A stretch of 64,000 nt of DNA from Comamonas thiooxydans (lineage in GTDB: Bacteria; Pseudomonadota; Gammaproteobacteria; Burkholderiales; Burkholderiaceae_C), in the NCBI RefSeq assembly GCF_002157685.2, contig NZ_AP026738.1:3100001-3164000 (forward strand), read 5' to 3'. The first letter of the stretch is position 1. Each line of letters opens with the position of its first letter. A program made the translations under genes and the position numbers. Below, piece after piece: positions 1 through 25,240 of this stretch. The notes under the pieces were generated by a model that worked only from the letters and a program-made list of their open reading frames with translations, ran no database searches and had not been told where the DNA came from.

Positions 1-88
1 TCTACATGCATGCAACCCTCTGAGAAATTAATACTTAAAGAGCTCCGCCAAATATTATGAATGGTCAGAACCAACATAATTCTTACAA

Positions 89-112: not shown

Positions 113-142
113 TAATATAAAAGATTCTTAAAAATACTGATT

Positions 143-2748: not shown

Positions 2749-2866
2749 CTCACTTTCACCATAGGTCGGCTTCAATAGTTTGAAGTCACTCCTTCGTTCG
2801 TGCGTGCTTTAGTCATCGCGGTATCTTGCGAGGTATTGCATCGCACTCAGAGCATCTAGAGGCTTT

Positions 2867-5846: not shown

Positions 5847-5861
5847 ACTGTGAGGTGACAC

Positions 5862-9005: not shown

Positions 9006-9064
9006 AGCAATTACGGGCTTTGAGGCGCAGCCCTTGATGCGCCTCGCTTTAGCTAGGAATAGTT

Positions 9065-9436
9065 ATGAAAAAACTGCTGTCTGCAGCTGTCCTGGGCCTT
9101 TCTCTGATCAGCATGAACGCCATGGCTCATGGCACTGCCAAGCCTCAGCACGGAGGCATTGTCCAATCGGCCAGCGATCTGTCCTTTGAGCTGGTTCCAC
9201 AAGCCAATGGTGCTGCCATCTACGTAATCGATCACGACGATCCTGCTGACGTGAGCAAGATGGGCGGCAAACTGACTGCGCTCAATGGTGCGGAAAAATC
9301 TGAAGCCGACATCAAGCCTGCCGGTGGCAACAAACTTGAAGCAACGGGTATTAAGGTTGCCAAAGGCAGCAAAGTCGTTGCGACCATCACCGGCGTTGAG
9401 GGCCAAACTGTCACCGTGCGCTTTTCGGTGAAGTAA
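9065..9436 (+). CDS. Small periplasmic protein of the metal efflux operon
   Basis: Protein of 123 residues with a clear signal peptide cleaved after NAMA and a mature N-terminus HGTAKPQHGG that could bind metal. The rest (about 90 residues) is predicted to be a small beta-rich domain with no Cys. It lies 59 bases after czcA and 38 bases before a His-rich transporter, on the same strand, so it is probably co-transcribed. No named family was recognised; a periplasmic metal-binding accessory role is inferred from context. Confidence 0.7.
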   Translation: MKKLLSAAVLGLSLISMNAMAHGTAKPQHGGIVQSASDLSFELVPQANGAAIYVIDHDDPADVSKMGGKLTALNGAEKSEADIKPAGGNKLEATGIKVAKGSKVVATITGVEGQTVTVRFSVK

Positions 9437-9474
9437 TACCCAGCTCGACTAAGCATAGGTAAGACGAGGTAGTT

Positions 9475-10518: not shown

Positions 10519-10556
10519 TGTTTGAGGCATTTTCGGGGCTATCTGCTCTCAGGCAA

Positions 10557-10581
10557 CCGTTGCTTTTACAACGGCTTTTTT
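10557..10581 (+). terminator. Rho-independent terminator after the efflux operon
   Basis: The stem is CCGTTG (10557-10562) with CAACGG (10569-10574), followed by a run of Ts. It separates the metal efflux operon from the chromate genes. Confidence 0.7.
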
Positions 10582-10601
10582 GATGAAGTTCGGAATGATT
10601 T

Positions 10602-10617
10602 TGTAGAGATCGCTACA
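10602..10617. promoter_or_regulatory. Candidate operator upstream of chrB
   Basis: TGTAGAGATCGCTACA is palindromic at 14 of 16 positions and sits about 40 bases before the chrB start, between the terminator and the gene. ChrB is a known chromate-responsive autoregulator in related clusters, so this is a plausible binding site. Binding is not shown. Confidence 0.4.
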
Positions 10618-10655
10618 GCATTGCAGCATTCATGACAGCACTCTAAGCTGCTGCC

Positions 10656-11618
10656 ATGACTCTCACTTCGGACTCTTGGCTGGCTTTGATCATCAGCCTC
10701 CCCGCCTCAAGCGCTACGCCGCGCATGCGGATTTGGCGCGCCGTGAAGGCATTGGGCTGTGCCGCCCTGCGCGATGGTGCCTATCTGCTTCCAGCGCAAG
10801 TTGAGCAAGCTGCGCAATTGCAAGCCCTTGCCGACGATGCGCTGCAGGAAGGTGGCCAAGCCTGGCTGCTGCAGGTGCAAGCGCGCGATATAGCCGAACA
10901 AACCACTTTCCAGGCGCTGTTCGACCGAACGGTCGACTACGCCCCCTGGCTGGAAGAACTGGCGCAAGCGCGCCAGACACTCTCCGTCATGAGCGCGACC
11001 GAGTTGGGGCGTCTGCAGCGCAAGCACGCGCGGACCTATGAAGCCATCCGCAGGATCGACTTCTTCCCTGCAGAAACCTCGATCCGCGCCGAAGCCCAGT
11101 GGCGGGACTTCAACAACGCCATCGAAGCCCTGCAATCGCCGGGTGAGCCACAGGCAATCGCCGGACACATTGCCCGACGTGATCGCATGCAGCACCAGGG
11201 GCGTCTCTGGGCAACACGCCGCAATCTCTGGGTAGACCGCGTGGCCAGTGCCTGGCTGATCCAGCGCTTCATTGATCCCCACGCACGCTTTCAATGGCTG
11301 GACACCCCGGCTGACTGCCCACCTGATGCGCTGGGTTTCGACTTTGATGGCGCGACCTTTTCGCACGTTGGCGACCGGGTGACCTTTGAGGTGCTGCTGT
11401 CGAGCTTTGGCCTCGACAGTGATCGAGGACTTTCCCAACTGGGCGCCATGGTGCATGCACTTGATGTGGGAGGCACATCCACGGCCGAGGCTGCGGGCTT
11501 CGAGGCTGTGCTTGCAGGTGCCCGCAAACGTTGGCCCGACGACGACTCACTCCTTGCAGACATAGGCGGGGTACTGGACTCGCTTCACGCCCATTTTTCC
11601 AGCCCACGCAAGCCGTAG
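10656..11618 (+). CDS. chrB: Chromate resistance regulator ChrB
   Basis: Protein of 320 residues with the two-part ChrB layout. The N-terminal half (about 1-170) is the ChrB N domain, with the opening SLPASSATPRMRIWRAVKALGC. The C-terminal half (about 185-315) is the ChrB C domain, starting RRNLWVDRVASAWLIQRFID. In characterised clusters ChrB is a chromate-sensing activator or repressor of chrA. It is the first gene of chrB-chrA-sod-(ChrB C domain), spaced by 24-63 bases. The isolated C domain recurs at 13537. Confidence 0.92.
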   Translation: MTLTSDSWLALIISLPASSATPRMRIWRAVKALGCAALRDGAYLLPAQVEQAAQLQALADDALQEGGQAWLLQVQARDIAEQTTFQALFDRTVDYAPWLEELAQARQTLSVMSATELGRLQRKHARTYEAIRRIDFFPAETSIRAEAQWRDFNNAIEALQSPGEPQAIAGHIARRDRMQHQGRLWATRRNLWVDRVASAWLIQRFIDPHARFQWLDTPADCPPDALGFDFDGATFSHVGDRVTFEVLLSSFGLDSDRGLSQLGAMVHALDVGGTSTAEAAGFEAVLAGARKRWPDDDSLLADIGGVLDSLHAHFSSPRKP

Positions 11619-11642
11619 CACTCAAGCACTTCAGAAACGAAC

Positions 11643-12836
11643 ATGAACAACCTCAACACAACGGTATTAGCCGATACCAGCCCCCCTGGCTACACACTCT
11701 GGCAGCTCGTGCGCTACATGCTGGCTCTAGGAACCTGGGGCTTTGGAGGCCCCGTGGCCTTAGCGGGTTATATGTACCGCGATCTGGTCGAAAAGCGCCA
11801 GTGGATCACCGATGCCGACTACAAGGAAGGCTTGGCCCTGGCCCAGTTGATGCCCGGTCCGCTGGCCGCACAGTTGGCGATCTACCTAGGCTATGTCCAC
11901 TTTCGGTTTCTAGGTGCCTCTCTGGTAGGGATCGCGTTCGTCCTGCCATCTTTCTTCATGGTCGTAGCTCTTGGTGCAGCCTACGTGGCCTACGGTGGCA
12001 TTGGCTGGATGCAGTCGGTTTTCTATGGCGTAGGGGCTGCGGTGATCGGCATCATCGCCATGAGTGCCTACAAGCTGACGACAAAGAGCGTTGGCAAGGA
12101 CAAATTGCTTTGGGTCATCTTCCTGATCAGCGCCGCCGTCACAGTGATCAATAAGTCGGAAGAAATTTGGCTCTTTCTTGGTGCGGGTGTACTCGTATGG
12201 CTCTGGAGAGCACCTCCCTCCTGGCTGACCCGTAAAAGCGGCCTCAATGGCGTTGCTATGCCGTTGGTCGGAATGTTCGCACTCAGCACCGTCGACTGGA
12301 CCAAGCTCAAACAGATCATCCTTTACTTCGCCTATGCCGGTAGCTTCGTTTTTGGTAGCGGCCTGGCGATCGTTCCCTTCCTCTATGGTGGCGTCGTCAA
12401 GGAGTATGGCTGGCTAACAGATCAGCAATTCGTAGATGCCGTGGCCGTGGCCATGATCACGCCCGGTCCTGTGGTCATCACCACTGGCTTCATCGGCTAT
12501 CTGGTCACGGGCTTTTGGGGTGCTGTAGCAGCAGCTGCAGCTACGTTCGTGCCTTGCTACTTGTTCACGGTGATCCCTGCGCCGTACTTCAAGAAATACG
12601 GCAAACGCCCTGACGTTATCGCCTTTGTGGATGGCGTCACTGCCGCCGCCATCGGCTCCATCGGGGGCGCTGTAATCGTCATTGGCCAGCGCTCTATCTC
12701 CGACTGGATCACCGCCGCATTGGCAATTGCCACCGCAGCCATCCTGTGGCGCTTCAAGAAACTCCCTGAACCCGTCATCGTGGTTGCGGCAGCACTTATA
12801 GGCTTGGTCATCCATCCGCTGGTCGCACACGGCTAA
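11643..12836 (+). CDS. chrA: Chromate efflux transporter ChrA
   Basis: CHR-family exporter of 397 residues, the long two-domain form. The first CHR repeat contains GTWGFGGPVALAGYM and the second contains GSGLAIVPFLYGG with MITPGPVVITTGFIGYL. About ten or more membrane helices are visible. It exports chromate from the cytoplasm, driven by the membrane potential. It sits between chrB and the superoxide dismutase gene in the order known from mobile chromate-resistance elements. Confidence 0.95.
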   Translation: MNNLNTTVLADTSPPGYTLWQLVRYMLALGTWGFGGPVALAGYMYRDLVEKRQWITDADYKEGLALAQLMPGPLAAQLAIYLGYVHFRFLGASLVGIAFVLPSFFMVVALGAAYVAYGGIGWMQSVFYGVGAAVIGIIAMSAYKLTTKSVGKDKLLWVIFLISAAVTVINKSEEIWLFLGAGVLVWLWRAPPSWLTRKSGLNGVAMPLVGMFALSTVDWTKLKQIILYFAYAGSFVFGSGLAIVPFLYGGVVKEYGWLTDQQFVDAVAVAMITPGPVVITTGFIGYLVTGFWGAVAAAAATFVPCYLFTVIPAPYFKKYGKRPDVIAFVDGVTAAAIGSIGGAVIVIGQRSISDWITAALAIATAAILWRFKKLPEPVIVVAAALIGLVIHPLVAHG

Positions 12837-12899
12837 TGCTCACCTGGATCTCAGCTGAATTTGCCACCCCACATCCGCCAACCTCCGAGGAGCATTCCC

Positions 12900-13514
12900 A
12901 TGGTTCTTCAACTGCGCCCGCTCACCATCGATCCAGCTTCGCTCAATGGTCTGTCTGAAAAGTTGATCGTTAGCCATCATGCGAACAACTACACCGGCGC
13001 TGTCAAACGCTTGAATGCCATCCGCCAGCAGTTGTCGCAGCTGGACTGGCCATCGGCGCCCGTGTTCACGATTAACGGCTTGAAGCGCGAGGAGCTTATC
13101 GCCGCCAACTCGGCCTGGTTGCATGAGTTGTATTTCGACATCCTGGGTGGAAACGGAGTGCTGCCGGATTCAGAGCTCTCAGCCGCCATAGCACGTGATT
13201 TCGGCAGTGTTGACCGTTGGCGGGCAGAGTTTTCCGCGCTGGCCAAGGCGATGGGGGGAGGCTCGGGCTGGGCGCTGTTGTCGTGGTCTTCCCGGGAGGG
13301 CCAGCTAATCACCCATTGGGCTCCAGACCACACGCATCTAGTGGCTGGCGCCACGCCCATATTGGCCCTGGACATGTACGAGCATGCGTATCACATGGAT
13401 TTCGGCGCCAAGGCTGCAGCCTATGTAGACGCATTCATGCAGAACATCCACTGGGAAGCGGTGATACGTAACTTCAGAGCCGCAACAGAGGTCTCTCGTA
13501 CCACTGGCGTCTAG
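12900..13514 (+). CDS. chrC: Fe/Mn superoxide dismutase, ChrC type
   Basis: Superoxide dismutase of 204 residues. The metal ligands are visible as His in SHHANNYTGAV near the N-terminus, a second His in the ELYFDILGGNG/AANSAWLHEL region, and the C-terminal Asp and His in LDMYEHAYHMDF. It is cytoplasmic. The upstream TTG frame would add 13 residues; the ATG at 12900 is chosen because GAGGAG lies 7 bases before it. Within chromate clusters this enzyme (ChrC) removes superoxide formed during Cr(VI) reduction. Confidence 0.9.
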   Translation: MVLQLRPLTIDPASLNGLSEKLIVSHHANNYTGAVKRLNAIRQQLSQLDWPSAPVFTINGLKREELIAANSAWLHELYFDILGGNGVLPDSELSAAIARDFGSVDRWRAEFSALAKAMGGGSGWALLSWSSREGQLITHWAPDHTHLVAGATPILALDMYEHAYHMDFGAKAAAYVDAFMQNIHWEAVIRNFRAATEVSRTTGV

Positions 13515-13536
13515 TGGGAAGCAAAGGAGTAGCACC

Positions 13537-13995
13537 ATGAAATGGATAACCCGAGAACGCCCGAAGATCGATCGCATCGCCTGCCCCTGGCTGATTGCGC
13601 GCTTTATCGATAAAGAGCCCGAGTTTCTCTATGTGCCGGCTAGCGAGGTATTGAACTCCGCCAGAGCCACGGGTGCCATCCCCTATGACATCCCAAATGT
13701 CGAGCTAAGCCATGTGGGGGAGCTGTGCAGCTTTGATGCCTTTATGGCGAAGTACGGCCTGGATTCACCAGCATTGCGCCAGCTGGCTGAGATCGTGCGC
13801 GGTGCCGACACATCTCGACTCGACCTAACACCGCAGTCGGCCGGGCTCTATGCGCTATCGCTGGGTCTATCCCATAACTTCGATGACGATCACGAAATGC
13901 TCAAGCATGGGCTCGTGATGTACGACGCGCTCTATACATGGTGCCGCTCTTGCCAGACCGAGACACACCGTTGGCCGCCAACCCTGACCGACTGA
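13537..13995 (+). CDS. Stand-alone ChrB C-terminal domain protein
   Basis: Protein of 152 residues that aligns by eye to the C half of ChrB. RPKIDRIACPWLIARFIDKEPEF matches the ChrB segment WVDRVASAWLIQRFIDPHARF. GGAG lies 9 bases before the ATG. The order chrB-chrA-chrC-this gene resembles that of the transposable chromate cluster TnOtChr, whose fourth gene is named chrF; equivalence is not shown. It may be an enzyme or a modulator of ChrB. The gene ends 23 bases before the next open frame. Confidence 0.8.
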   Translation: MKWITRERPKIDRIACPWLIARFIDKEPEFLYVPASEVLNSARATGAIPYDIPNVELSHVGELCSFDAFMAKYGLDSPALRQLAEIVRGADTSRLDLTPQSAGLYALSLGLSHNFDDDHEMLKHGLVMYDALYTWCRSCQTETHRWPPTLTD

Positions 13996-14018
13996 CCACC
14001 TGGACCGTGACTATCAAA

Positions 14019-14436
14019 ATGTTTGCCTTCTCCCTACGGTCCCAGGTCCGTCATAACGCCTGGAGCTCCCGACTCGTCCTCGCCACATGTGTCCAGGCCA
14101 TGAGCTTGGCCGCTGCTTCACCATCAGTTGGACATGGCGAGCTCACCGGCTCGCAGATCCACGCAGCAATCGTCGGCAAGTACGTGACCGACGAACACCA
14201 TTGGGTGTCACAAATACTTTCCCAATGGACGCGTTGAGCGGTTGGAGAACGAGCGATTGAAGTCAGCACGCTGGTCCATAAAAAACGACCGGCTGTGCTT
14301 GCTTCAACCTGAGATCAGCAAGGTCGAGCCGATCTGCTACCGCGTGGTGCGCGACGGGCAAGAGTTGCAATACTTAGATGACAGCGACTATGTGGCGTTC
14401 CGTGGCGTGGTGAAGCCCATGCCCAAAAGTGAGTAA
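14019..14436 (+). pseudogene. Exported protein broken by a single-base frameshift
   Basis: The frame from 14019 gives a signal peptide and a mature part ending GKYVTDEHHW, then runs out of frame and stops at 14237. The shifted frame continues with HKYFPNGRVERLENERLK and runs to 14436 with good coding character (KSARWSIKNDRLCLLQPEI, CYRVVRDG). Removing one G from the GGG at 14203-14205 would join both parts into one protein of about 138 residues. The family is not recognised. It could be a true mutation in the chromate cluster or a sequencing error. Confidence 0.65.
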
Positions 14437-14581
14437 GGCTGAATGAGGGCATGCATGCGCTCTCTCCATATCCTCCGTTACAGGAAATCGCTACTATCGT
14501 GGTCGTTTTCTACGGGAGGTCGAGTGGCGCCAACGGGGCGGCTTGACCGGGTAGCGAGATCCACTGGTTTCGTCATCTTGC

Positions 14582-14911
14582 TCATCGCGTTGATCTTTGG
14601 CGGACTCTTTTTGGTAGGTTCGACTCCACTAGAGAGAACTCAGTTTCGTTAATGCCTACCTTCCCCAACTGGTTGATGAAGTCGTCAACGAGCTCTAAAG
14701 CCCATAGTGCCTTTAGGTAAAACCCAAATTGCACCCCTGGGTGGCCGGCCTCCATCTTTACGACGGTGTTCAAAGACATCTGAGTGGCATCGGCGAGATG
14801 TTGCTGGGTCATCTCTCGAATACGACGAGCCATTCTGATCTTTTTTCCCATAAGCAGTGCGGCATCTTCTGACTCAAGGGGCAGCATCGCGGTGTCGGAG
14901 GACTTTTTCAT
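14582..14911 (-). CDS. XRE-family transcriptional regulator
   Basis: Protein of 109 residues with one helix-turn-helix at about 25-55 (RRIREMTQQHLADATQMSLNTV), then the MEAGHPGVQFGFYLKALWAL segment typical of small Xre/HipB-like regulators. It is preceded by an AT-rich 300-base region with repeated TTAAAGG/CCTTTAA words that could be its operator. The partner gene, if any, is not obvious; the next gene upstream on the same strand is a phosphatase 300 bases away. Confidence 0.8.
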   Translation of the reverse strand: MKKSSDTAMLPLESEDAALLMGKKIRMARRIREMTQQHLADATQMSLNTVVKMEAGHPGVQFGFYLKALWALELVDDFINQLGKVGINETEFSLVESNLPKRVRQRSTR

Positions 14912-15214
14912 AAGCTATGTGGAAAAAATTACCTTTTAAATAGTAATTAAGTCTAATTTTTACCACTTAAAGGAAAGTTTATTGATTCAATTTAGGCAGA
15001 AACCTGCCTTGTGCTCGCATCTTGGCTGGAAGGGAGGCTGCACCAAATTTCCCTTTAAATGATATGCAAACCATATAAATAACAATTAAAGGCAAATTTA
15101 CATACACAGTAAGCGGCAGATGCGTCTTCGGGGCAAGGCTTAAACCAAACAGCCTCTGCGAAACCAGGTGCGATTCAACGCTGAGCTTTAACTTCACTTG
15201 ACTGCAGCATCAAA
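14912..15214. promoter_or_regulatory. AT-rich intergenic region with repeated CCTTTAA words
   Basis: This non-coding stretch between the XRE gene and the phosphatase gene contains four related words: CCTTTTAAA (14932-14940), TTAAAGGA (14967-14974), CCCTTTAAAT (15051-15060) and ATTAAAGG (15085-15092). Two are in each orientation. The first is just upstream of the XRE start. They may be regulator binding sites; no gene was found here. Confidence 0.35.
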
Positions 15215-15685
15215 TCAACGCTTACTAACCTCCATGGTCGTCACAACAGACCGATTGGCTTGATTGAGACTGCTCGCGCTCACAGCAAAGCCGTAGATAT
15301 TGTGTAAAGCCAAGACAACGCCGCATGATCGCGAATAGCCGCCCTCACAATGGACAACCACGGTCCTGATCTCCGGCGCCAGAGCCTGCACGAATGCATG
15401 GATATCCTTCGCCTGCTGGAGCGTAAAACCGTCCTTGATTTTTGCCTTCGCTCGCGCAGAAATCTCCGTGTCCAAAAAATCGACGTCGGCAAAGCTCAGC
15501 CGCAAAAGCTGGGTAAATCCATGTACTTCAGCAAGGGCTCGCTCAGGAGCAGTGATCGAAATCATCGCCACTGTACCGAGCGGTGGAAGTTGTTCTGCCA
15601 CCTGTCTTGAAACAGCAATTGCCTGGCGAACGCCTGATGGTGGTTTATATAGAAGACCTATGACTTCCTTCAGCGACTGACCCAC
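15215..15685 (-). CDS. Tyrosine/dual-specificity phosphatase-like protein
   Basis: Protein of 156 residues. The only strong motif is HCEGGYSRS, the HCX5R phosphate-binding loop of cysteine phosphatases, at about 113-121, preceded by the strand IRTVVVH. An Asp in SFADVDFLDTEI could serve as general acid. The N-terminus starts MGQSLKEVIG; an internal Met (MISITAPERA) is an alternative start. It is cytoplasmic. Target unknown. It sits among island accessory genes with wide gaps either side. Confidence 0.6.
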   Translation of the reverse strand: MGQSLKEVIGLLYKPPSGVRQAIAVSRQVAEQLPPLGTVAMISITAPERALAEVHGFTQLLRLSFADVDFLDTEISARAKAKIKDGFTLQQAKDIHAFVQALAPEIRTVVVHCEGGYSRSCGVVLALHNIYGFAVSASSLNQANRSVVTTMEVSKR

Positions 15686-15953
15686 TTTTCATCCCCCTTG
15701 CAGCGTGCATCCAGGGCACACTTATTTACGCATATCCCGAAGCGCTCTCCTGTCGCTACGTGATCCCTTCTGGATCGATAGATCCATACCATCTACTGAA
15801 GATCAGCGGCTCGCTCATATCAAGAGCCGAGTCGCGATGGAAAGCCGAAGGTTAGTGGAGCCCGTTTAAGCAGCTCATGGACAGCTGACGCCGCCCCTGA
15901 GACGCTGCGTCGTTGGCACCTGGTGAGCCTGAAGGCGGCTTGAGATCACAGCG

Positions 15954-16496
15954 TCATAGGGCGAAGGTGATCCGCTGCAGACCAAGTCGAACCTGCTCTA
16001 CAACTGCCGGATCCGCCAGACCTTTTTCAGGATGTGATCTGACAAGCTTGTTACGACACCAAGCGGGCCACTGCAAATAGTCATCGTCAATCGCAAGCCA
16101 ATCAGATGGACGACGACGAAACACATCAGCCCAGACCTGCATACCTCGGTAAGCTGATTCGAATTCGGCCCGATTCATTTGACTGTGAAAGGTTGCCCCG
16201 ACGACCCTAGTGCGAAGCTCAAGAGGCAGACGACGCGCGGCACCATGACAACCGTACTTCATGGCCCAGGAAGTAGACAGGACGATGCGGACTGCGGGAT
16301 GAGGCTCCAAGAGCTCGACAAGCAGAGGAGCATGTTCGAATAACCTGTCTCTAGAAGATGCGTCTAGGTAGGGCCCTTTTGACGCTGACCAAAGCACATT
16401 ATGGTGATGTAAAACCCCGTCGAAATCGAGGTACAGTACCGGCCCGCAACCAGACAAACCTAAAGACTCTGACCTATTGATGTACATGTTCGTCAT
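15954..16496 (-). CDS. HAD-fold protein of the RNA-repair-associated type
   Basis: Protein of 180 residues with the HAD motif I DFDGVLHHH at about 24-32, motif II in IVLSTSWA (about 72-79) and motif III/IV acids in WLAIDDDYLQWP. This pattern matches the small HAD domain found in multidomain RNA-repair proteins (PF18143 type) and in many stand-alone island genes. The likely activity is phosphate transfer or removal; the substrate is unknown. Two small unknown genes lie upstream on the same strand with gaps of 81 and 63 bases, so the three may form an operon. Confidence 0.7.
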   Translation of the reverse strand: MTNMYINRSESLGLSGCGPVLYLDFDGVLHHHNVLWSASKGPYLDASSRDRLFEHAPLLVELLEPHPAVRIVLSTSWAMKYGCHGAARRLPLELRTRVVGATFHSQMNRAEFESAYRGMQVWADVFRRRPSDWLAIDDDYLQWPAWCRNKLVRSHPEKGLADPAVVEQVRLGLQRITFAL

Positions 16497-16577
16497 GGCA
16501 GATCTTCTTCGGAAAAGTGCAATTTTTCAGTAGCAGCCGACAATCAGGCCCTCAATACTTCAGGCTCTCCAGCTGAC

Positions 16578-16904
16578 CTACAGAGATCTAAAGTGATCTT
16601 TTAACTTACCCATAATCCACAAATTTTCGTCTGCAGTTAGACCCCAAGGCTTTTGGGACAACGATTGTGCAACTGCTTTAAGAAGCGCCTCCCAAGAATG
16701 CGATGGTTCTTTTTTCCGCTCACAATAGGTCACAAGCTGATCTACAAGATCTTTGCAGACATCATAACGTTGATAAATCTCATCTTCATCAGGCTGATCA
16801 AGATAGTAACGACCATCAATTTTGACAACACTTAATTTTGGCTGTGCGCCAGAGAGTGCGCTGAAACTATGCTGCCTCGGAAAATCTGAGGGTACTTTGT
16901 TCAT
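16578..16904 (-). CDS. Hypothetical protein, 108 residues
   Basis: This small soluble protein has no recognised catalytic motif. The N-terminal segment FSALSGAQPKLSVVKIDGRYY resembles the start of HipA-type N domains (SGAQPK), but the protein is far too short to be HipA. The C-terminal half is helical with a WGLTADENLWIMGKL motif. It lies between the 141-residue unknown and the HAD gene on the same strand, and is probably co-transcribed with them. Confidence 0.55.
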   Translation of the reverse strand: MNKVPSDFPRQHSFSALSGAQPKLSVVKIDGRYYLDQPDEDEIYQRYDVCKDLVDQLVTYCERKKEPSHSWEALLKAVAQSLSQKPWGLTADENLWIMGKLKDHFRSL

Positions 16905-16967
16905 GATTTAGATCTGTCTGTAAGTGGAGCTTCTGAATTCAACGTGCATAGCGCCTGAAGTCACGCC

Positions 16968-17393
16968 TCACACGCCACTTCTAAGAATATTTTCGAACTT
17001 CTCAATAAGCGTTGCATAACCAGAGTGATTAGGAATTCCTTGACGACGAGACAAGATTTCTGCATCCACATATGCATGGAACAACTTCAGCCCTTCGTCG
17101 ATATACCGCTCCTCAAGTAATTTCGGCGATGCAGGACGAAGATTTGCTAGAGACGGGTGTCTCCATAAGAGCGCGAAAACCATTGCTACTGGGGCAAGGG
17201 CATTTCGTCCTAGGTTACCTCTCAACAATGAGACGCTGTCGAACCCTTGCAAATTTGGAAGGCATTTAGCAAGCGCAGCAAGTTCATCCAACGTGAAGTT
17301 TGCAAGGGGCTGATGCAGCCAATTTTTCGCCTGCATTTTGCTTAGAGCCTCTGAGTAAGTTAGACCAACCGAGTGCTCTGCTGTCGTTGACAT
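16968..17393 (-). CDS. Hypothetical protein, 141 residues
   Basis: This helical soluble protein has no recognised family. Internal stretches such as NFTLDELAALAKCLPNL and LLEERYIDEGLKLFHAYVD have coding character, and the frame is open with ATG start. It is the first gene of a possible three-gene unit (this gene, the 108-residue gene, the HAD gene). Function unknown. Confidence 0.5.
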   Translation of the reverse strand: MSTTAEHSVGLTYSEALSKMQAKNWLHQPLANFTLDELAALAKCLPNLQGFDSVSLLRGNLGRNALAPVAMVFALLWRHPSLANLRPASPKLLEERYIDEGLKLFHAYVDAEILSRRQGIPNHSGYATLIEKFENILRSGV

Positions 17394-17618
17394 CGCTGTA
17401 TTTCTCTATGAACTCAAAGGTAGTAGATAGCTTCGGAGATGCCGAGCCTGCGGCACAGCTCTGCCAGCAGCAAGCTGGCTTCAACCTCTCTCAACAATCC
17501 ATGATCTGCTTCGTTAAATAGCTTCTTCAGCTTCTGTCATTGAGCTGGCACGCCAAGGCCAATGCTACTCAATGCAGCTAGTGCACTGAGGAGGCACAAC
17601 GATAGCTTTAGTCAAATT

Positions 17619-17663
17619 GTGCCATATATGTCAGTGCCATATAAGAAGTAGTCACATAAGAAG
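17619..17663. repeat. Three imperfect 15-base direct repeats upstream of an XRE gene
   Basis: Successive 15-mers are GTGCCATATATGTCA, GTGCCATATAAGAAG and TAGTCACATAAGAAG. Copies 1 and 2 share GTGCCATATA; copies 2 and 3 share ATAAGAAG. They end about 35 bases before the XRE start at 17699 and are likely binding sites or part of its promoter. Confidence 0.5.
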
Positions 17664-17698
17664 TCGACGTGCAAGAGGTGTTACAGGAACATGTGATC

Positions 17699-17974
17699 AT
17701 GTATGTTCCGAAGCTCCCAAAGCAAAAAACGACTGTCTCTACGAAGGAGCTACTCGCCAAGAATCTTGTGTATCTGCGTGCTGAACGTAAGATGTCCCAA
17801 GAGGATCTCAGCTACCTGGCGGGACTAAGCAGAACAGTTGTTAGCCACATTGAACGCAAACAACGCAACGTGACCCTCGAAACTTTAGAGGCTCTTGCAG
17901 CGGCCCTCAACGTCCCTGTTCGTGATCTGCTCGAGGAATCCATTCCGAATCAATTGCCGCCAGCCAAAGAATGA
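17699..17974 (+). CDS. XRE-family transcriptional regulator
   Basis: Protein of 91 residues with a canonical Cro/C1 helix-turn-helix (about 18-72): LRAERKMSQEDLSYLAGLSR, then VVSHIERKQRNVTLETLEAL. The ATG at 17699 is preferred over the GTG ten codons upstream because ACAGGAAC lies ahead of it. Short direct repeats just upstream suggest autoregulation. It is the only plus-strand gene in this part of the island and has no obvious partner. Confidence 0.8.
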   Translation: MYVPKLPKQKTTVSTKELLAKNLVYLRAERKMSQEDLSYLAGLSRTVVSHIERKQRNVTLETLEALAAALNVPVRDLLEESIPNQLPPAKE

Positions 17975-18583
17975 TGGCCCCCGGTTCGACAGAGGCTTTA
18001 GCGTCTATTTGGAGCCGCCATCTCTACAGCTTGAAACAAGCTTGCCTTAGCTACGCCACCCAATTTCAGCTTTGTCAGCAAAGCGATTCTTAGGTTATCC
18101 CTGGCGCACAGGGATGAATCTACAGGGCCTCGTTCATCGCTCTAATGACGTCGGCCAAGTCGCTGTCATAGCTGTCTCACTTGATATCAGGGGAGAGATC
18201 GACGGTGATCACGAGTCGTTCGAAGATGCCAGCTTGGGACTTTTCTTAGGCAGGACTACGCTGTCGCCAACCTGGAACGGCCGGGCATGTAGAACCTGGT
18301 CGGCCACAACAAGCGCAAAGTCCGTAAACATCGGACCTCCCACGACGGCCTGCGATGTGCTTGCAATGACCTATCACGTGTCACCAGCCTTGCCTAGCAG
18401 TGAGCTTCCTTGAGCCACGAACCTTGTTGTCTCACCAAGCACAGACCCACCGATTGCGAGTACGTAGCTTTCCGCACGACCTAAGATACCTGACCCGGAT
18501 CTTAGAAGTTGATAACTATCTAGCTAGACCGACTTAAACTCATTTTCTAATCCACATGCATGAAAACTAGCTGGTCTGATTAA
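17975..18583. other. Stretch without a supported gene
   Basis: A 113-codon open frame at 18072-18413 (plus) was examined and not accepted: its composition is not protein-like and no motif was seen. No terminal inverted repeat was recognised beside the recombinase module. Confidence 0.5.
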
Positions 18584-18985
18584 TTATTTTTTTGAGGGCC
18601 TTAAAATATTGACTCCTGCCCCAAATGAAGCCACTACTCCCTCAAGTTTAGCGACCAAGAGAACAAGACGAGCATTCTCACTTGCTAGACCTCTGTTTTG
18701 CACACGTAGCTCTTTTACTTCTGTGCGAAGTTCATCAGCCCGATTTTGTGCTTTCTTAATTGCGGACCGTTTAACCTCAAGCTGCTGTTTCGGCCCCCGC
18801 CCACTGGCGTTTCGAATCTCATCAGCAATATCCGAATATTTAGTGTGTATGAGGGTGTGACTTACACCTACTTCACGTGCAACAGCGCTAATAGATGGTC
18901 CATTTTTTCCTACCCGATCAGCATCGCGTTTAAGCTTTTTGAAAGCCAACTGTAGGCGCTCCCGCGTAGTACGTGACTCAGGCAT
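18584..18985 (-). CDS. TnpC-like small accessory protein of the recombinase module
   Basis: Protein of 133 residues. The N-terminal part has a helix-turn-helix-like motif (ISAVAREVGVSHTLIHTKY). It is followed by a long coiled coil (about 70-118: KKAQNRADELRTEVKELRVQ). This is the layout of TnpC of Tn554 and of related small proteins that follow paired tyrosine recombinases. Its start overlaps the end of the upstream recombinase gene by 8 bases, so the four genes are translationally linked. In Tn554 TnpC influences the efficiency and orientation of transposition. Confidence 0.75.
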   Translation of the reverse strand: MPESRTTRERLQLAFKKLKRDADRVGKNGPSISAVAREVGVSHTLIHTKYSDIADEIRNASGRGPKQQLEVKRSAIKKAQNRADELRTEVKELRVQNRGLASENARLVLLVAKLEGVVASFGAGVNILRPSKK

Positions 18986-20858
18986 TGTGCAACCCTCCTT
19001 CTGCGTCTATAAGTTGCGATAAGACTTCCTCTGCCAAAGCAAGCCCTTTTGCAGCTTTTGCCAATCCTCCTGGACCAATGTCTGTAGCATTTAGAAGCTC
19101 ATTATGCTGTGCACGAAGCCCGCCCCATACTTCCGTGAAACTATTATCAATAACTGCATTTCCACAGTTCGCACACGTAGGCGCGTCAAATAGTCCATAG
19201 CCTCCGCAGTCTTGTGCTTCTGCAAGACACCAACTATGGCCGGTGCTACGAATATGCAAGCCTTCTCTGATGCTATCAACAAAATCACGCCTACTTTTGA
19301 AGAAAATGGGTTGATGATGCTTTCCCGCATAACTACGAATGCGCTTACCAAGGCCACCAGCAAGAGGCGTAGAAGCCTCCATCCAATGGTCCACTAGCGC
19401 AAGGTCAAAATAATCTTCTTCGGCTTCAATGAGCTCATAAAGTTCGCGATCCGTATCCGAAAGAGATGCATACCAATCGGTCATCAGCACACTAGCATGC
19501 TTAAAATGATGCTGCAAAGTGACCAAATCAATACGTACTCGTTTATTAAGATGCACTACGATTACCGCATACGTTCTCCGAAACCGATGCGTGCTCAATG
19601 GCGACTTCAATAGTATTCCCTTACGAACAGCAAAGGCATTTAACTGTTTATTGTGCGACCGAGTTGTGACGGAGAAATTTTCAACAGGAGACTCTAATAA
19701 AAATAGTCTATCGACATTGCGTTCAAGCTCAAGGACTTCCGCTGCTAGTTGCCCACGAGAAATCAAATCCGTCGATTCGGAGAGCTTCCTTCGTGTCGTG
19801 ATTAGTTGGTTAGCTAAGTCTTGACGAATAGGTAGTGAATGATGCTCCAGAATATCCACGGCCATCTTTGCAATTTCGGGAGCAAGCCATCGTGCTGGGC
19901 CATCACCAATTTTCCGAGTTGTCGATTTTAGCCACCAATAGGTCTCTCCGTCTTTTACTTCAGGATAGATGCATCCAACACGCAGATCTCCAAGCTCGTG
20001 TACTCTGCAGCCAGTCGTCATTGCCAATATAATGTAAGCAGCAGTCCGAATGTCAGCTAACGCCGTTTCAAATTTAAATGAAGAACTGAACCCAGCGGCG
20101 CGCACAGCACGACGCTTAACAGTTGCCCCCCATTGCTTTCTGGTAATATCTCCCTCGGCCAATCCCCACTTCGATTCCAATTCATCTCTGAGTTTCAGCA
20201 AGCGGGGTGCATCTTCAAGTTGTAATATGGCGGCACCAAACAATCTAGCGGCCTCGCCCAGGGGAATTAGCTCAGTTTTACGTTCTTCATTCGCTCCTGG
20301 CTCCCAGGTTGGTCCTATTATTTCAAATCTAAGCGCAGTAACTGCGTCAGCTGAAAAGCTCTCAATCATTGCATGCCTTAAATCATAGACTTTACGTAGC
20401 AGTGAAATATGAGTTGCTAATGTTCGATCACGGACACCGCTATCTCGCAAAAACTGGATATATCTAGACAAATCAAACGCGGTGACACGGCTAAATCCAT
20501 TTACTCCAGCTGCATTACACCATTTTGCAAACGAATTGAGATTAATACTTTTTTTTGGGATAGTAGCCGGATCAAGTTGGATTCCTCCCAGAGGTTTCCT
20601 AAATGTAAAAGCTGCTATAGCACTCTTCATGCAGGATAGCCATTCGACTGGCGTCTTGTTCCAATCGATTTCTTTCTCAACCCTGGATCTATCTGGATGT
20701 GGCATAAAAGGCGTGTAGTTCCAGATTTTATCTCCGTAAAATGAAAGGGGCACTTCGTCGCCATTAGAGAGGCGTATATATGAAACAACAAGTTTATCTA
20801 ATTTTTCAGGAGCCAAGTGCATAGGCTCCGAACATGCTTGATAGGATTGGCTAATCAT
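18978..20858 (-). CDS. Large tyrosine recombinase (TnpB-like), catalytically complete
   Basis: Protein of 626 residues from the ATG at 20858, chosen because it overlaps the upstream stop as ATGA; a 14-residue longer form is possible. The catalytic set is visible: R285 in TTGCRVHEL, H424 and R427 in THRFRRTY, H454 in FKHAS and Y463 in TDWYASL. The C-terminal tail has paired Cys (CLAEAQDC, CANCGNAV) suggesting a zinc-binding element. Length and organisation are close to TnpB of Tn554. It should cut and join DNA at the element ends. Confidence 0.85.
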   Translation of the reverse strand: MISQSYQACSEPMHLAPEKLDKLVVSYIRLSNGDEVPLSFYGDKIWNYTPFMPHPDRSRVEKEIDWNKTPVEWLSCMKSAIAAFTFRKPLGGIQLDPATIPKKSINLNSFAKWCNAAGVNGFSRVTAFDLSRYIQFLRDSGVRDRTLATHISLLRKVYDLRHAMIESFSADAVTALRFEIIGPTWEPGANEERKTELIPLGEAARLFGAAILQLEDAPRLLKLRDELESKWGLAEGDITRKQWGATVKRRAVRAAGFSSSFKFETALADIRTAAYIILAMTTGCRVHELGDLRVGCIYPEVKDGETYWWLKSTTRKIGDGPARWLAPEIAKMAVDILEHHSLPIRQDLANQLITTRRKLSESTDLISRGQLAAEVLELERNVDRLFLLESPVENFSVTTRSHNKQLNAFAVRKGILLKSPLSTHRFRRTYAVIVVHLNKRVRIDLVTLQHHFKHASVLMTDWYASLSDTDRELYELIEAEEDYFDLALVDHWMEASTPLAGGLGKRIRSYAGKHHQPIFFKSRRDFVDSIREGLHIRSTGHSWCLAEAQDCGGYGLFDAPTCANCGNAVIDNSFTEVWGGLRAQHNELLNATDIGPGGLAKAAKGLALAEEVLSQLIDAEGGLHNA

Positions 20859-22471
20859 AGGATGGACCTCAATGCCTCCAGCACGCTTGGGGAACGCCAC
20901 ATAGGATGGGGCTCCAATCGAGAAAAATCCTTCGCTTGCGCAACAACACTGGCATCAAACCTAGGTGCAATATCGCGATCAATAACTCTTACAACCCACC
21001 CGAACAACTTATTCCAAGCATCAGGTCCAATGCGGCTTCTCAGCGAAAATAGAGCCCAATAAAAGCTGAAAAGCTTATATAAATCATCTTGGACGATTAC
21101 TTGAGATTTACATCGAAAACATGACAGAAAGTCTACACACGGCTCACCGTTTCCAGGAGCCAACTCACCGTTCAACGCATCTCGACAACCTGAGTGTGGT
21201 GTAGCATCACGCTTAACTGAGGCCCCAGAAAGAGTTTCAACAAGAACCTCGCCCGCTAGTCGGTGTTCTTTAAGCATTTCAGGTGTCACGGCAAGATACC
21301 TCTCAACTGAACCTGGGGTACTGGATGCGCTCCTTGCCGTGGCAAGTAGGTCTCCGCGCGATGCCCTCCATATCCTGTTTATTTTGGTATTGCGGAACAA
21401 CTGACTAGTCATCTTTAATCGAGTTCCATCATCCCGAAGTAAGCAGTGCCGGTCGGTAAATTGATCTGCAATGGAACTGAGTGTCCCAGTGTCCAAACCC
21501 AAAACCCGTTGATCGCGCTCATAAACCCAAAGTTTGTCTTCGAGAGAAGTTCCAATAGCACGCTTTGCAGCGGCTGCAGAAAGATGAACCACGCGTTCAC
21601 AGAGCTTAAAGACATCTAATGAGACAATCCTTGTTTCAGAAGGCTCAATTGGAGTCTTGCTGAAAGCATCAGCGCGTCGCTTGAAAGTAATCAAAATTTT
21701 CCGATTCACCCGTGGATGATTAATGAAGCACCTTTCTAGGTTCCTGGACATTTCAAGAAGGGGAGTTGGATTGATGCCTGTTTTTAGAAAAATTGCAAAA
21801 ATGCATAACCCAAGGCGAGTAGATTCTGCCCATGCAGGATGTGTTCCGTCGAAAACCTGTGCAACCTCGATCGACAGTGGCCTGAGAATACGTTCCCGCT
21901 CGGAATCAGAGAGTGGCTGGATGTAGTGACGACGATTTTTCGGATCTGTAGCACCAGGGAATGGATTTCTACGAAACAAATCTTTCGCCAAAATGAGTCG
22001 ACGATCCACGAGCGCTTCAAGCACTGTCTTGACTTTCTGATATACCGTACGCGAGGTGTTCCTTGACCAGACCTCTCCATTTTTTTTCACTCGCGTATTA
22101 AGCCATCCGCAGAAAACCTCAATCAACTCTGAGTTAATGTTCCCCAAGGTTGGCGGATTGCCATACTGCGCGGATTCAATGCAAAACCGAAACCAACATC
22201 TAATTCCAGAACTTGCGATGGTGTTAAGTGCATAAGGCTCCGGAACGCCTTGAAGCGACATCAGCCTCAATTCCTGCACAATTGCAGAAATACTATCATC
22301 GAAACCAAATCCAAAATACTCTCCATAATCATAGTTGACTTCACGTCCGTTAGGAAGCTCAAGCGACAATGTCGCATACTTACTTTTCAAATCGGGCTTG
22401 GCATTCGGAAAAATTGGCGTAATAGGAATGAGATCTTCCCCATTTACTTTGAAGTCTTTCTTTTTGGCCAT
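20855..22471 (-). CDS. Tyrosine-recombinase-like protein with a degenerate active site
   Basis: Protein of 538 residues, start supported by GAGGTG 6 bases upstream and a 10-base gap from the preceding gene. The C-terminal half has the integrase fold pattern. But the first catalytic Arg position reads TGINPTPLLEM (231-241) rather than TGxRxxEL, the HxxR position reads QLFR (357-360), and the next His is absent near SASSTPGSVERYL. A Tyr remains (Y392). A CVDFLSCFRC cluster follows. It may be a structural partner of the two complete recombinases rather than an active enzyme. Confidence 0.75.
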   Translation of the reverse strand: MAKKKDFKVNGEDLIPITPIFPNAKPDLKSKYATLSLELPNGREVNYDYGEYFGFGFDDSISAIVQELRLMSLQGVPEPYALNTIASSGIRCWFRFCIESAQYGNPPTLGNINSELIEVFCGWLNTRVKKNGEVWSRNTSRTVYQKVKTVLEALVDRRLILAKDLFRRNPFPGATDPKNRRHYIQPLSDSERERILRPLSIEVAQVFDGTHPAWAESTRLGLCIFAIFLKTGINPTPLLEMSRNLERCFINHPRVNRKILITFKRRADAFSKTPIEPSETRIVSLDVFKLCERVVHLSAAAAKRAIGTSLEDKLWVYERDQRVLGLDTGTLSSIADQFTDRHCLLRDDGTRLKMTSQLFRNTKINRIWRASRGDLLATARSASSTPGSVERYLAVTPEMLKEHRLAGEVLVETLSGASVKRDATPHSGCRDALNGELAPGNGEPCVDFLSCFRCKSQVIVQDDLYKLFSFYWALFSLRSRIGPDAWNKLFGWVVRVIDRDIAPRFDASVVAQAKDFSRLEPHPMWRSPSVLEALRSIL

Positions 22472-22480
22472 CTTAACACC

Positions 22481-23695
22481 TCACTTCTCGTTAAGATATC
22501 CGAGCACTAGGGCATCAATTTCTGACTGATAGTTTGTCCCATAACTATCATCAATCGCATCGAGGTGATCCACATAGCGCGATGTTGTGGTGATTGACGA
22601 ATGTCCAAGTAAGTTTTTCAAAATAATCAACGGCGAACTACGAATTTTTCCGGCACTTTTTAAATCTTGAAGCGAAGAAAGAGTGTGTGTCGCAAAAGTG
22701 TGACGAAGCATATGAGGGTGAATATGAAATCCTATTCGCCGACCAAGCCGATCAAGAGGCGCAACTAACCCATCATCAACAAATGGTTTTCCGAACCTAT
22801 TGAGAAATAAATTATTACTATCAGGAGCTAGACGTTGCAATCTTGGCCGGATTCCCTCCCGATATTGCCAGAGTATATTCATACAACCCACAGATACTCG
22901 AACAGTCCTCCTCTTGTTATTCTTTACATTCATATCGGAAGGATCGAGATTTACAGAGACAGTCTTTACTTTCGATGAAAATTTACTGCAATCAACAACG
23001 TATTTCTTGGGAAATGAAACAAGCTCCTCCGCACGCAAGCCAGTATTCAATCCGAGATAGAGCACCGCCCTGTGAGTAGGATTATTAGCACCCGACAAAA
23101 CAGTTTCAATTTGGCCTCTAGTCAAAACCAATAATGGCTCATCTGGCTCAGGTAAACTCAAACTAGAAATCTTCCGTATCTCGCCCTCTGCTGAATTATG
23201 GGAGAATATTCCACGATTTTTATGTGCTCGTATATCAATACGCATACTAGGCATCTCGGTAACTAACCCGACTTGAAGTGCCCATGTATAGAAGCGCTCT
23301 ACCGTTGCTCTTTTTTCATTGATGTAGCGCCCCTTATTACCCACGCTCTTTTTGCACCAATGTACATAGTGGGCAAGTGATGATACGTCACCACTTCCTT
23401 CGACAGGAATTCGATCCCAGCTTAGATTCTTTCTAGGTTCCAGATAACCGAAATAATCATAGAGGTGGCGGCCATAGGCCTCCCAGGTCTTTAAGTCTTC
23501 TGCTCCAACCCGGCCAATCAGGTAATCCACAAAAAACCGGAGCGCTACCTCGACTATGTGTCCTTTGGAGTCAACAAGAATCGGGAATCCTTCATAGGAT
23601 TGCCCGCCAACCTCAAAGCTGGAGTCACTGAGATAAAGCCTCACAGATTTTTCTCCATTTGCCACTTGATTCCTGCCACCGAACCCAGACCACAA
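22481..23695 (-). CDS. Tyrosine recombinase/integrase (TnpA-like)
   Basis: Protein of 404 residues with a complete catalytic set: R221 in NTGLRAEEL, H328 and R331 in HMLRHTF, H365 in LLGHSS and Y374 in TSRYVDHL. A SAM-like core-binding domain occupies about 48-160. The start is TTG at 23695, with AAAGGAC ahead of it; no ATG fits the N-terminus well. It is the first gene of the four-gene mobility unit and lies nearest the island end, as tnpA does in Tn554. Confidence 0.88.
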   Translation of the reverse strand: MWSGFGGRNQVANGEKSVRLYLSDSSFEVGGQSYEGFPILVDSKGHIVEVALRFFVDYLIGRVGAEDLKTWEAYGRHLYDYFGYLEPRKNLSWDRIPVEGSGDVSSLAHYVHWCKKSVGNKGRYINEKRATVERFYTWALQVGLVTEMPSMRIDIRAHKNRGIFSHNSAEGEIRKISSLSLPEPDEPLLVLTRGQIETVLSGANNPTHRAVLYLGLNTGLRAEELVSFPKKYVVDCSKFSSKVKTVSVNLDPSDMNVKNNKRRTVRVSVGCMNILWQYREGIRPRLQRLAPDSNNLFLNRFGKPFVDDGLVAPLDRLGRRIGFHIHPHMLRHTFATHTLSSLQDLKSAGKIRSSPLIILKNLLGHSSITTTSRYVDHLDAIDDSYGTNYQSEIDALVLGYLNEK

Positions 23696-23996: not shown

Positions 23997-24869
23997 GAGG
24001 GGCTAACATCACTTCGTCATAGCCCCTCGCAGAGCAGTTATGCTTGCGGCCCTCATGGCAAGACGACCCGTTAGCAAAGAACTGTGGCGACAGCTACAAC
24101 CCCTGATCCCAGCCTTCGTGCCTTCTGCCAAAGGCGGTGCGCGCAAGCTCGCGGTCAGCGACGAAGCCGCCCTCAACGGCATCCTGTTCGTGCTGCAAAC
24201 AGGCATTCCATGGGAGGACCTTCCCCAATCTCTTGGGTACGGCAGCGGCATGACTTGCTGGCGGCGCCTGCGTGACTGGAATGCCGCTGGTGTCTGGAAG
24301 CAGTTGCACCAGGCCATGCTGACGCGCTTGCGTGAACACGACCAGATCGATTGGAGCCGGACCAGCATTGATGGCTCCTCGGTACCAAGCCCCCGGGGGG
24401 CCAGGAAACGGGCCCCAACCCCACGGATAGAGGCAAGCTCGGCTCCAAACGACACATCGTCGTAGATGCCAGAGGCATCCCGCTGGTGATCTTGGTCAGC
24501 GGCGCGAACCGGCACGACTCTAAGATGTTCGAGAGGTGCGTGGACGCGATTCCTGCGATTGCAGGCTTGTCAGGGCATCCCCGTAAAAGACCAGCCAAGC
24601 TGCACGCCGACAAAGGCTACGACTTCAAGCGATGCCGAACCCACCTGAGGCAGCGGGGCATCATCGGCCGGATTGCCAGACGAGGCGTTGAGAGCAGCCA
24701 GCGGCTGGGCAAGCACCGCTGGGTGGTGGAGAGGACGCACAGCTGGTTTGCAGGCTTTGGCAAGCTGCGAATCCGCTTTGAACGACGGCTGAATATCCAC
24801 GAAGCGCTCTTGAAGTTGGCGGCAGCGATCATCTGCGCACGCTTCGTGGATAGGTGGTGTTAGCCAGTC
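23997..24869 (+). mobile_element. IS5-family insertion sequence (IS427-like), 873 bp
   Basis: Terminal inverted repeats are GAGGGGCTAACATCAC (23997-24012) and, read inward from the other end, GACTGGCTAACACCAC (24854-24869), matching at 13 of 16. Both ends are flanked by TAA (23994-23996 and 24870-24872), a TNA-type target duplication usual for the IS427 group. The element holds one transposase in two frames. It sits between the recombinase module and the island end, so it appears to be a later insertion into the island terminus. Confidence 0.85.
24040..24863 (+). CDS. IS5-family transposase made by -1 frameshifting
   Basis: The first frame (24040-24465) encodes the N-terminal DUF4096-type domain (GILFVLQTGIPWEDLP, WRRLRDWNAAGVW) and reaches the first catalytic Asp region (SIDGSSV). 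The second frame runs to 24863 and encodes RHIVVDARGIPL, the DKGYD motif (second Asp) and the RWVVERTHSWF motif (Glu). Frame 1 passes to frame 2 by a -1 shift at the G6 run 24395-24400, giving a full-length DDE transposase. This is typical of the family, so it is scored as a functional gene rather than a pseudogene. Confidence 0.85.
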
Positions 24870-24910
24870 TAAGTGTGAGATCGGCTGAGTAACAAGTCTA
24901 TGTCGGAAGA

Positions 24911-25240
24911 ACAGTTGATGTCCGTGCCGATGGCCGCAGGAATCACGAAGTCTGGCGACGTGGCCACCACCGCCCCCACGGGCGCAATGCTGCCGGGGTG
25001 AAAGTCCGGCGTGGCACAGGCTTTGCAGACCTCGCCATGGCCTTGCGGGTCGGCAACCGAGGCGAAGTCCAGCAGTTGACTAACGGCTTTGTGCTCCAGC
25101 GGCAGGCTGTCGGGCAACAAAATGGTGGCTGCTGCCTGCTCGTTATGGATTTGATAGATATTGTCTCGGTAGGAGACCTGGATGCCCTGACGTGACAGAG
25201 CTTTTTGCAGTCGGGAAAGCTTCCCGGAAGAGTGCGGCAT
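24911..25240 (-). pseudogene. rtcB: 5' part of rtcB, cut at the GTDINC active-site motif
   Basis: The N-terminal region matches the RtcB RNA ligase family: PDFHPGSIAPVGAVVA followed by VIPAAIGTDINC, the conserved motif whose Asp and Cys bind Mn. The family would continue with GMR; here the frame changes to SSDIDLLL and ends in the IS. The 3' two thirds of the gene are not in the window. ATG at 25240 is used as start; TTG at 25264 is possible. The gene was evidently interrupted by the island. RtcB joins RNA 2',3'-cyclic phosphate and 5'-OH ends, so that activity should be lost unless another copy exists. Confidence 0.75.

What the first reader, a model, noticed from the sequence alone, without database searches (positions are those of the whole stretch)
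18584..23695. Four-gene mobility module with three recombinases, the middle one apparently inactive
Three tyrosine-recombinase-like genes and one TnpC-like coiled-coil gene are joined by a 10-base gap, an ATGA overlap and an 8-base overlap. The first and third proteins show complete catalytic sets (R, HxxR, H, Y). The middle protein keeps only the Tyr and one Arg: TGINPTPLLEM replaces TGxR and QLFR replaces HxxR. Tn554 has two recombinases plus TnpC; RIT elements have three active recombinases and no TnpC. This combination fits neither exactly and may be a distinct family in which a non-catalytic recombinase is a structural subunit.
Basis: partly seen in the sequence, partly recalled or inferred. 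Interest (0 to 1): 0.7.

Follow-up and report, generated by a model that had tools for sequence, protein, structure and literature searches.

The report
Metal-resistance island that splits rtcB
The four genes are the DNA-moving machinery of a 45.5-kb mobile island inserted into the active-site codons of the RNA-repair gene rtcB in a Comamonas bacterium; the machinery is of a recently named kind (SE elements), but this branch lies outside its published host range and one of its three recombinases looks like a disarmed partner.

Summary
In detail: four coupled minus-strand genes, two complete tyrosine recombinases (about 387 and 626 aa), between them one without Arg I and the HxxR His (538 aa), and a coiled-coil protein. 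This order is that of published SEs (strand-biased circularizing integrative elements, intA-tfp-intB-srap; PMC10214605), so 'distinct family' fails at that level. New here: (1) five relatives are contiguous across a 45,543-bp insertion whose right end is this module; it has imperfect terminal inverted repeats, 6-bp spacers (CAACTG / AAACTG), and splits rtcB at the GTDINC codons. (2) Three related modules abut the same rtcB codons. (3) In 87 aligned middle proteins Arg I is always Asn, the HxxR His always absent, Arg II, Lys and Tyr always kept: a maintained pseudo-recombinase, not decay. (4) The branch is common in Betaproteobacteria (27 of 79 loci), where the SE survey found no Tfp/Srap homologues. 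Filed as a new variant of a known kind. Membership rests on anatomy and weak homology; a GInt third protein also gives a weak profile match, and the type GInt was not available. Strand-biased copy-out, with the disarmed subunit blocking second-strand exchange, is inferred, not shown.

The parts
22481..23644 (-). intA-like tyrosine recombinase, 387 aa from GTG 23644 (404 aa if TTG 23695 is used), RHRHY complete
20855..22471 (-). tfp-like protein, 538 aa: tyrosine-recombinase fold, Arg I replaced by Asn234, HxxR His replaced by Gln357, Lys264, Arg360 and Tyr392 kept, C-terminal C429/C445/C451/C454 motif
18978..20858 (-). intB-like large tyrosine recombinase, 626 aa, RHRHY complete, C-terminal Cys motif
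18584..18985 (-). srap-like (TnpC/DUF6262-like) coiled-coil protein, 133 aa
24887..24911 (-). terminal motif C (attL side), TTCTTCCGACATAGACTTGTTACTC read on the minus strand; first base of the element is 24911
   Evidence: found with 2 mismatches over a 22-base probe in L050/L062 and L061
24912..24917 (-). 6-bp spacer CAACTG at attL; the empty site reads CAACTG in relatives G019 and G029 and CAATTG in G021, G017 and G013
24908..25240 (-). 5' part of the target gene rtcB (residues 1-111 of the 467-aa G019 protein); residues 109-467 lie outside the window at G000:C1:3078291-3079367
23997..24869 (+). IS5-family-like insertion sequence between attL and intA, two ORFs (24040-24465, 24486-24863), probable 3-bp TAA duplication
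   Evidence: ends and duplication read by eye, family name from my own knowledge
1..18583 (.). cargo part of the element inside the window (two-component kinase, AcrB-type efflux pump, chrB-chrA and others); the element goes on to the attR end at G000:C1:3079369, window coordinate -20631

Best explanation
The four genes are the recombination core of a 45,543-bp integrative element of SE type (intA-tfp-intB-srap) in a Comamonas of the C. testosteroni group. Shown here (about 0.9): the two ends, the empty site in relatives, the target (rtcB codons for GTDINC), the imperfect terminal repeats, the 6-bp spacers, and recurrence of gene order and target in relatives. Inferred from the SE literature (about 0.6): IntA and IntB bind the C and C' ends, cut 6 bp apart, exchange one specific strand between attL and attR, host replication turns this into a circular copy, and the circle integrates into another rtcB leaving its 6 bp at attR. 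Own proposal (about 0.35): the middle protein binds as a recombinase-like protomer but, with Asn for Arg I, cannot activate the scissile phosphate; it fixes the architecture and keeps the second strand from being cut, giving the strand bias and the missing empty site reported for SEs. The srap-like protein is an auxiliary assembly factor.
For: Contiguous empty site in 5 of the 5 close relatives fetched. C/C' imperfect inverted repeat: score reached by 33 of 20,000 random pairs from the same element; in a second complete element (G025, 16,976 bp) by 268 of 20,000. In both, attL and attR spacers differ by one base (CAACTG/AAACTG; AGGCTG/CGGCTG), as expected if attR carries bases brought from a former site. 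Same rtcB codon in the four related modules in which I read an end: own, L050/L062, L061, L063. Mer-carrying L009 on pBT2436: ATCTGA-N12-GTTAGTA at both ends and ACAACG spacers inside umuC, read by eye without an empty site. Four-gene order in 74 of 79 loci and in 6 of 6 other loci of the genus, one with intA shortened, one (L050) the same as L062 of the 79. Homology to the Tfp of named SE-Pda04Ya311: hhalign 94.5%, E 8e-8, residues 227-529; by eye that Tfp also reads TGQN and keeps the Tyr. Asn/Arg/Lys/Tyr pattern in 87 of 87. Recombinase fold.
Against: No circle, strand bias or lack of an empty donor site was tested; these come from Vibrio SEs. BLASTP to SE references is weak: against SE-Pda04Ya311 E 0.16, 5e-4, 2e-5, 0.26 for genes 1-4; against V. 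pectenicida L143 3e-9, 1e-8, 5e-17, none; the two references are closer to one another in genes 1, 3 and 4 (1e-19, 6e-24, 2e-5) though not in gene 2 (9e-8). L143 and L144 are SE-like by my reading, not named in the paper. The third protein of the E. coli GInt gives a hhalign match of 53%, E 1.4e-4, over residues 337-492. The SE survey found no Tfp/Srap homologues in Alpha- or Betaproteobacteria. An insertion sequence lies between attL and intA, so this copy may be silent. The spacer difference could be a later point change; L009 has identical spacers. By PMC10214605, Tn554 leaves a 6-bp footprint without a tfp.
Confidence: 0.8

Rival explanations
1. [quoted passage not shown]
For: Also three recombinase-like genes and a small gene at one end, and reported in Betaproteobacteria (PMC5385486, PMC10214605). 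hhalign of the middle family with the third protein of an E. coli GInt: 53%, E 1.4e-4, residues 337-492.
Against: The one GInt I could fetch, at the E. coli ssb site (L020), has no BLASTP match to the proteins compared below E 0.05, and hhalign with its second protein is 0.6%. The papers place the non-catalytic GinC after ginA and ginB; here the non-catalytic gene is second. Caveat: the type GInt (P. stutzeri DSM 4166) was not available, and I identified L020 as a GInt from its ssb site, gene set and PMC5385486/PMC10121019, not from a published list.
Confidence: 0.14
2. Tn554-like transposon with an extra, decaying recombinase gene.
For: TnpA/TnpB/TnpC counterparts and a 6-bp footprint (PMC10214605).
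Against: The middle gene is open over 538 codons and conserved: N234, K264, R360, Y392 in 87 of 87 aligned sequences, and coupled to gene 3 by ATGA.
Confidence: 0.03
3. The 45.5-kb insertion was moved by something else and the module is only a passenger near its edge.
For: An insertion sequence separates intA from attL and the cargo is mosaic.
Against: The same end sequence and the same rtcB codon flank the intA end of two other modules (L050/L062, L061) with 62-66% identity in the middle protein, in another kind of rtcB; G025 shows both ends.
Confidence: 0.05
4. The middle protein still takes part in catalysis in trans, its conserved Tyr being the nucleophile in an active site completed by a neighbour.
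For: Tyr392, Arg360 and Lys264 are invariant in 87 of 87 sequences, which a purely structural role does not obviously need.
Against: Arg I is Asn in all 87 and the HxxR His is gone in all 87; in most tyrosine recombinases these act with the Tyr of the same subunit, Flp-type enzymes excepted (general knowledge).
Confidence: 0.2

Closest known systems
SE, strand-biased circularizing integrative elements (SE-6945, SE-6283, SE-Pda04Ya311)
   Same: Gene order intA-tfp-intB-srap at one end, catalytic sets in first and third protein, 6-bp spacers, imperfect terminal inverted repeats, insertion in a gene, coupled genes (PMC10214605; SE-Pda04Ya311 fetched as L141).
   Different: Host is a betaproteobacterium; Tfp 538 aa (the survey filtered out hits under 550 aa before counting unique sequences); local identities to the SE references mostly 18-29%; target rtcB; 45.5 kb (published median 15.7 kb, maximum 58.5 kb). 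Circle and strand bias untested.
GInt (ginABCD; PMC8865565 lists Tn6488 and Tn6571 with ginABCD as Tn554 subfamilies, passages)
   Same: Three recombinase-like genes plus a TnpC-like gene, all four essential in one member; 6-nt staggered cuts proposed (PMC5385486).
   Different: Place of the non-catalytic gene; no BLASTP similarity to the E. coli ssb GInt, weak profile match with its third protein only; other target.
Tn554
   Same: One ordinary and one long recombinase plus TnpC; 6-bp footprint.
   Different: No tfp counterpart (PMC10214605).
RIT elements
   Same: Three adjacent recombinase-like genes.
   Different: RIT proteins of the archetype are 315-410 aa, all with the catalytic Tyr, 34-bp inverted repeats, no fourth gene (PMC10214605 Table 1; PMC3414803 passages).

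Membership tests
SE element | Four core genes in the order catalytic - non-catalytic - large catalytic - small auxiliary, at one end | tested here: met
SE element | RHRY in IntA and IntB, absent as a set from the second protein | tested here: met
   Arg II and Tyr are nevertheless kept in 87 of 87
SE element | Sequence homology of the second protein to a named SE Tfp | tested here: met
   hhalign 94.5%, E 8e-8 against SE-Pda04Ya311; BLASTP alone weak, E 5e-4
SE element | Homology of the fourth protein to a named Srap | tested here: inconclusive
   BLASTP E 0.26 against SE-Pda04Ya311, 2e-7 against the SE-like L014
SE element | Imperfect terminal inverted repeats (13-19 bp published) | tested here: met
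   33 of 20,000 random pairs reach the score; the alignment needs a gap
SE element | 6-bp spacer between element end and target at both borders | tested here: met
SE element | attL x attR recombination without empty site and with only the left 6 bp in the circle | not testable with these tools
   needs PCR and amplicon sequencing
SE element | No mobilisation genes | not tested
   only 10 cargo ORFs were scanned; no relaxase among them
SE element | Published host range Gammaproteobacteria (a distribution, not a definition) | tested here: not met
   host Comamonas by alaS; 27 of 79 loci are Betaproteobacteria by record title
GInt | Homology to GInt proteins | tested here: inconclusive
   no BLASTP match to the E. 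coli ssb GInt; hhalign 0.6% and 53%; type element not available
GInt | Non-catalytic GinC after ginA and ginB | tested here: not met
   non-catalytic gene is second; gin order taken from PMC5385486, PMC6405952 and PMC10214605
RIT | Three catalytic recombinases of 315-410 aa and no fourth gene | tested here: not met
Tn554 | TnpA, TnpB, TnpC only | tested here: not met

The most novel reading that the evidence does not exclude
The window belongs to a further lineage of SE-type elements, spread over Beta- and Gammaproteobacteria and not in the published survey, in which an obligate pseudo-recombinase (Arg I fixed as Asn, Tyr kept) is the dedicated subunit that forbids second-strand exchange and so turns two ordinary tyrosine recombinases into a one-strand, copy-out transposase; one sub-branch reads the active-site codons of rtcB, a widely conserved gene, as its target.
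Probability: 0.35. Interest if true: 0.75.

Novelty: new variant of a known kind. Interest (0 to 1): 0.52.

Why it matters
If it holds, a recently named class of mobile elements reaches beyond the Gammaproteobacteria. Two complete members with defined ends and a shared target in a conserved gene can be assayed, and the question why SEs move only one strand becomes a question about one subunit that has lost Arg I but keeps its Tyr. It also explains how metal-resistance and phage-defence cargo came into this Comamonas chromosome.

Tried and rejected
The repeat search of 15500-27500 gave no ends, because one end lies 20.6 kb outside the window. An ABC-transporter target (as for the Pht-PAI GInt) was looked for upstream of intA in the 79 loci: I noticed none, but one printed stretch per locus was read by eye only. 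The genome-contig scan with P0002 alone found 14 stretches and no relative; alignment A1 found 172 relatives, of which the best 80 (79 distinct loci) were kept, so the tail is not surveyed and the sample leans towards the query. tblastn of P0002 in plasmids: 147 records, all under 60% identity, Pseudomonas 87, Burkholderia 13, Paraburkholderia 10, Cupriavidus 7 among them. 369 genomes of the class gave a match in 2, own included; 53 of the genus in 7, own included. PADLOC gave nothing for the four proteins. The middle family's best PDB match by profile is XerA, E 0.033; P0003 has none at E 1; hhalign of the middle family with P0003 gave 0.2%. Print: SE terms occur in 8 papers, all listed, none on Betaproteobacteria by title and start of abstract; of wider searches only the first 10 and 25 of 513 were listed. 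Islands in rtcB: 15 of 94 papers listed, none of those 15 with the word rtcB; the one paper with all four terms, PMC3224125, has rtcBA as island cargo (passages). Absence from this library is not absence from print. The 87 middle proteins include identical or near-identical copies (L098/L099, L070/L071, L095/L096, L127/L132/L133 and others), related sequences are not independent, and L141, L143, L144 and the genus loci L050-L055 were not in that count. The tree took 70 of the 79 loci (shortened ones dropped) plus 16 references. L061 and L068 are labelled Sphingomonas/Sphingomonadales MAGs and may be mis-binned.
Full report
WHAT IS THERE. The window lies at G000:C1:3100001-3164000 of a single-contig 5.9-Mb genome. 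Its alaS product is 99% identical to named Comamonas testosteroni/thiooxydans proteins, so the host is a betaproteobacterium of that group. Sizes: about 387, 538, 626, 133 aa.

THE NAMED FAMILY. PMC10214605 (first part of the Background, Results, Discussion and the survey method read) describes SEs with intA-tfp-intB-srap, Tfp having a recombinase fold without the RHRY set. Knock-outs of intA, intB and srap each abolished circle detection; only the srap knock-out could be complemented, and no tfp knock-out was obtained. GInts (PMC5385486: abstract, Results, Discussion and legends read) also need four genes, the non-catalytic one being called GinC.

ENDS AND TARGET. DNA from the right of the module was searched in 61 genomes, own included; five close relatives were fetched, and 60 kb of the own left flank. 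All five run on from window -20,636/-20,633 to 24,912: G000 holds an insertion of 45,543 bp, G000:C1:3079369-3124911. Read on the element strand, the empty site in G019 is GGCACGGATATCAACTGCGGCATACGCC, inside rtcB at the codons GTDINC-GIR. The attL border of G000 reads ATCAACTG|TTCTTCCGACATAGACTTGTTACT and the attR border AGTAACAGTTACCATGTCGTCAGAG|AAACTG|CGG. The 467-aa rtcB of G019 is found in two parts, residues 1-111 at window 25240-24908 and 109-467 beyond the left end; the genome has a second, apparently whole rtcB at C1:4192294-4193334. The ends form an imperfect inverted repeat whose score 33 of 20,000 random pairs from the element reach.

INDEPENDENT COPIES. G025 (same contig as L062, a Burkholderiaceae MAG placed in the same genus) has a module with 62% identity in the middle protein in an element of 16,976 bp, in a different rtcB (VGVDIG), with attL AGGCTG|TTCTTCCGACATCTACTTG and attR TTGTAGTAAGAA|CGGCTG|CGG. 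L061 (labelled Sphingomonas MAG, 66%) shows the same attL in rtcB. L063 (Dechloromonas MAG, 52%, intA shortened) shows the attR side, GTTACCATGTAGTAAGAA|CGGTTG|CGG, in rtcB. That is each of the four related modules in which I read an end. Further off, the mer-carrying element L009 of pBT2436 lies in umuC with like-built ends and ACAACG at both sides (by eye).

WHERE IT BELONGS. BLASTP E-values of the window against the SE-like V. pectenicida L143 are 3e-9, 1e-8, 5e-17 for genes 1-3 and none for gene 4; against SE-Pda04Ya311 (L141, the GMA-1 element of pAQU1) 0.16, 5e-4, 2e-5, 0.26. L141 and L143 are closer to one another in genes 1, 3 and 4 (1e-19, 6e-24, 2e-5) but not in gene 2 (9e-8). Profile comparison with the Tfp of L141 gives 94.5%. 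The E. coli ssb GInt gives nothing by BLASTP; its second and third proteins give 0.6% and 53% by profile. A FastTree of 86 taxa on genes 1-3 has three groups: L141+L144, L143+L014+L015, and 81 others with the window; the support of the 81-group is 0.73 and there is no true outgroup. By title, counted by eye, 27 of the 79 loci are Betaproteobacteria, 49 Gammaproteobacteria, 2 Alphaproteobacteria and 1 is unplaced. In the genus 7 of 53 genomes carry one, own included.

CARGO. ORFs between the ends are listed. Pfam for ten of them: HamA with a helicase neighbour (Hachiman-like phage defence) next to attR, a UmuC-like polymerase, two AcrB-type efflux pumps in CBA-like clusters, a sigma-70 factor, a histidine kinase, ChrB and a chromate transporter, and an EptA-like phosphoethanolamine transferase. 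G+C is 0.43-0.50 at 16-24 kb against 0.56-0.69 to the right of it.

MECHANISM. Shown: boundaries, target, spacers, conservation. Inferred from the SE literature: one-strand exchange and copy-out. My proposal, untested, is that the middle protein occupies recombinase positions in the synapse and, lacking Arg I, prevents the second exchange. The invariant Tyr leaves catalysis in trans open.

Noticed in passing
window -19964 to -16996 (L049:36-3004): HamA and a helicase neighbour, a Hachiman-like phage-defence pair, sit next to the attR end of the element.
   Followed up: partly
L115:3393-13813 and L084: Two four-gene modules of this kind lie close together in one locus; in L115 they are head to head with overlapping first ORFs.
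   Followed up: no
L010 (pVb1796, IncC plasmid): A relative of the module is followed by an integron integrase gene and blaVMB-1, so this resistance gene may ride on an SE-type element.
   Followed up: no
L142:10840-16158: Upstream of a GMA-1-carrying SE lies a second four-gene module whose middle gene is annotated in two pieces, with qnrS2 behind it.
   Followed up: no
L009, about 7713-17520 (pBT2436): A mercury-resistance element of this branch is inserted in umuC at the SNNDG codons; L111 also has umuC sequence upstream of intA.
   Followed up: partly
L020/L019: The E. coli ssb-site GInt carries avs4; its second protein reads TGRRP in box I and ARRFR for HxxR, its third SRITE and HQAR, so the published statements on which Gin protein lacks which residue deserve a check.
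   Followed up: no
window 23997-24869: Insertion sequence inside the element between attL and intA; partial, diverged matches elsewhere in the genome (85% and 78%).
   Followed up: partly
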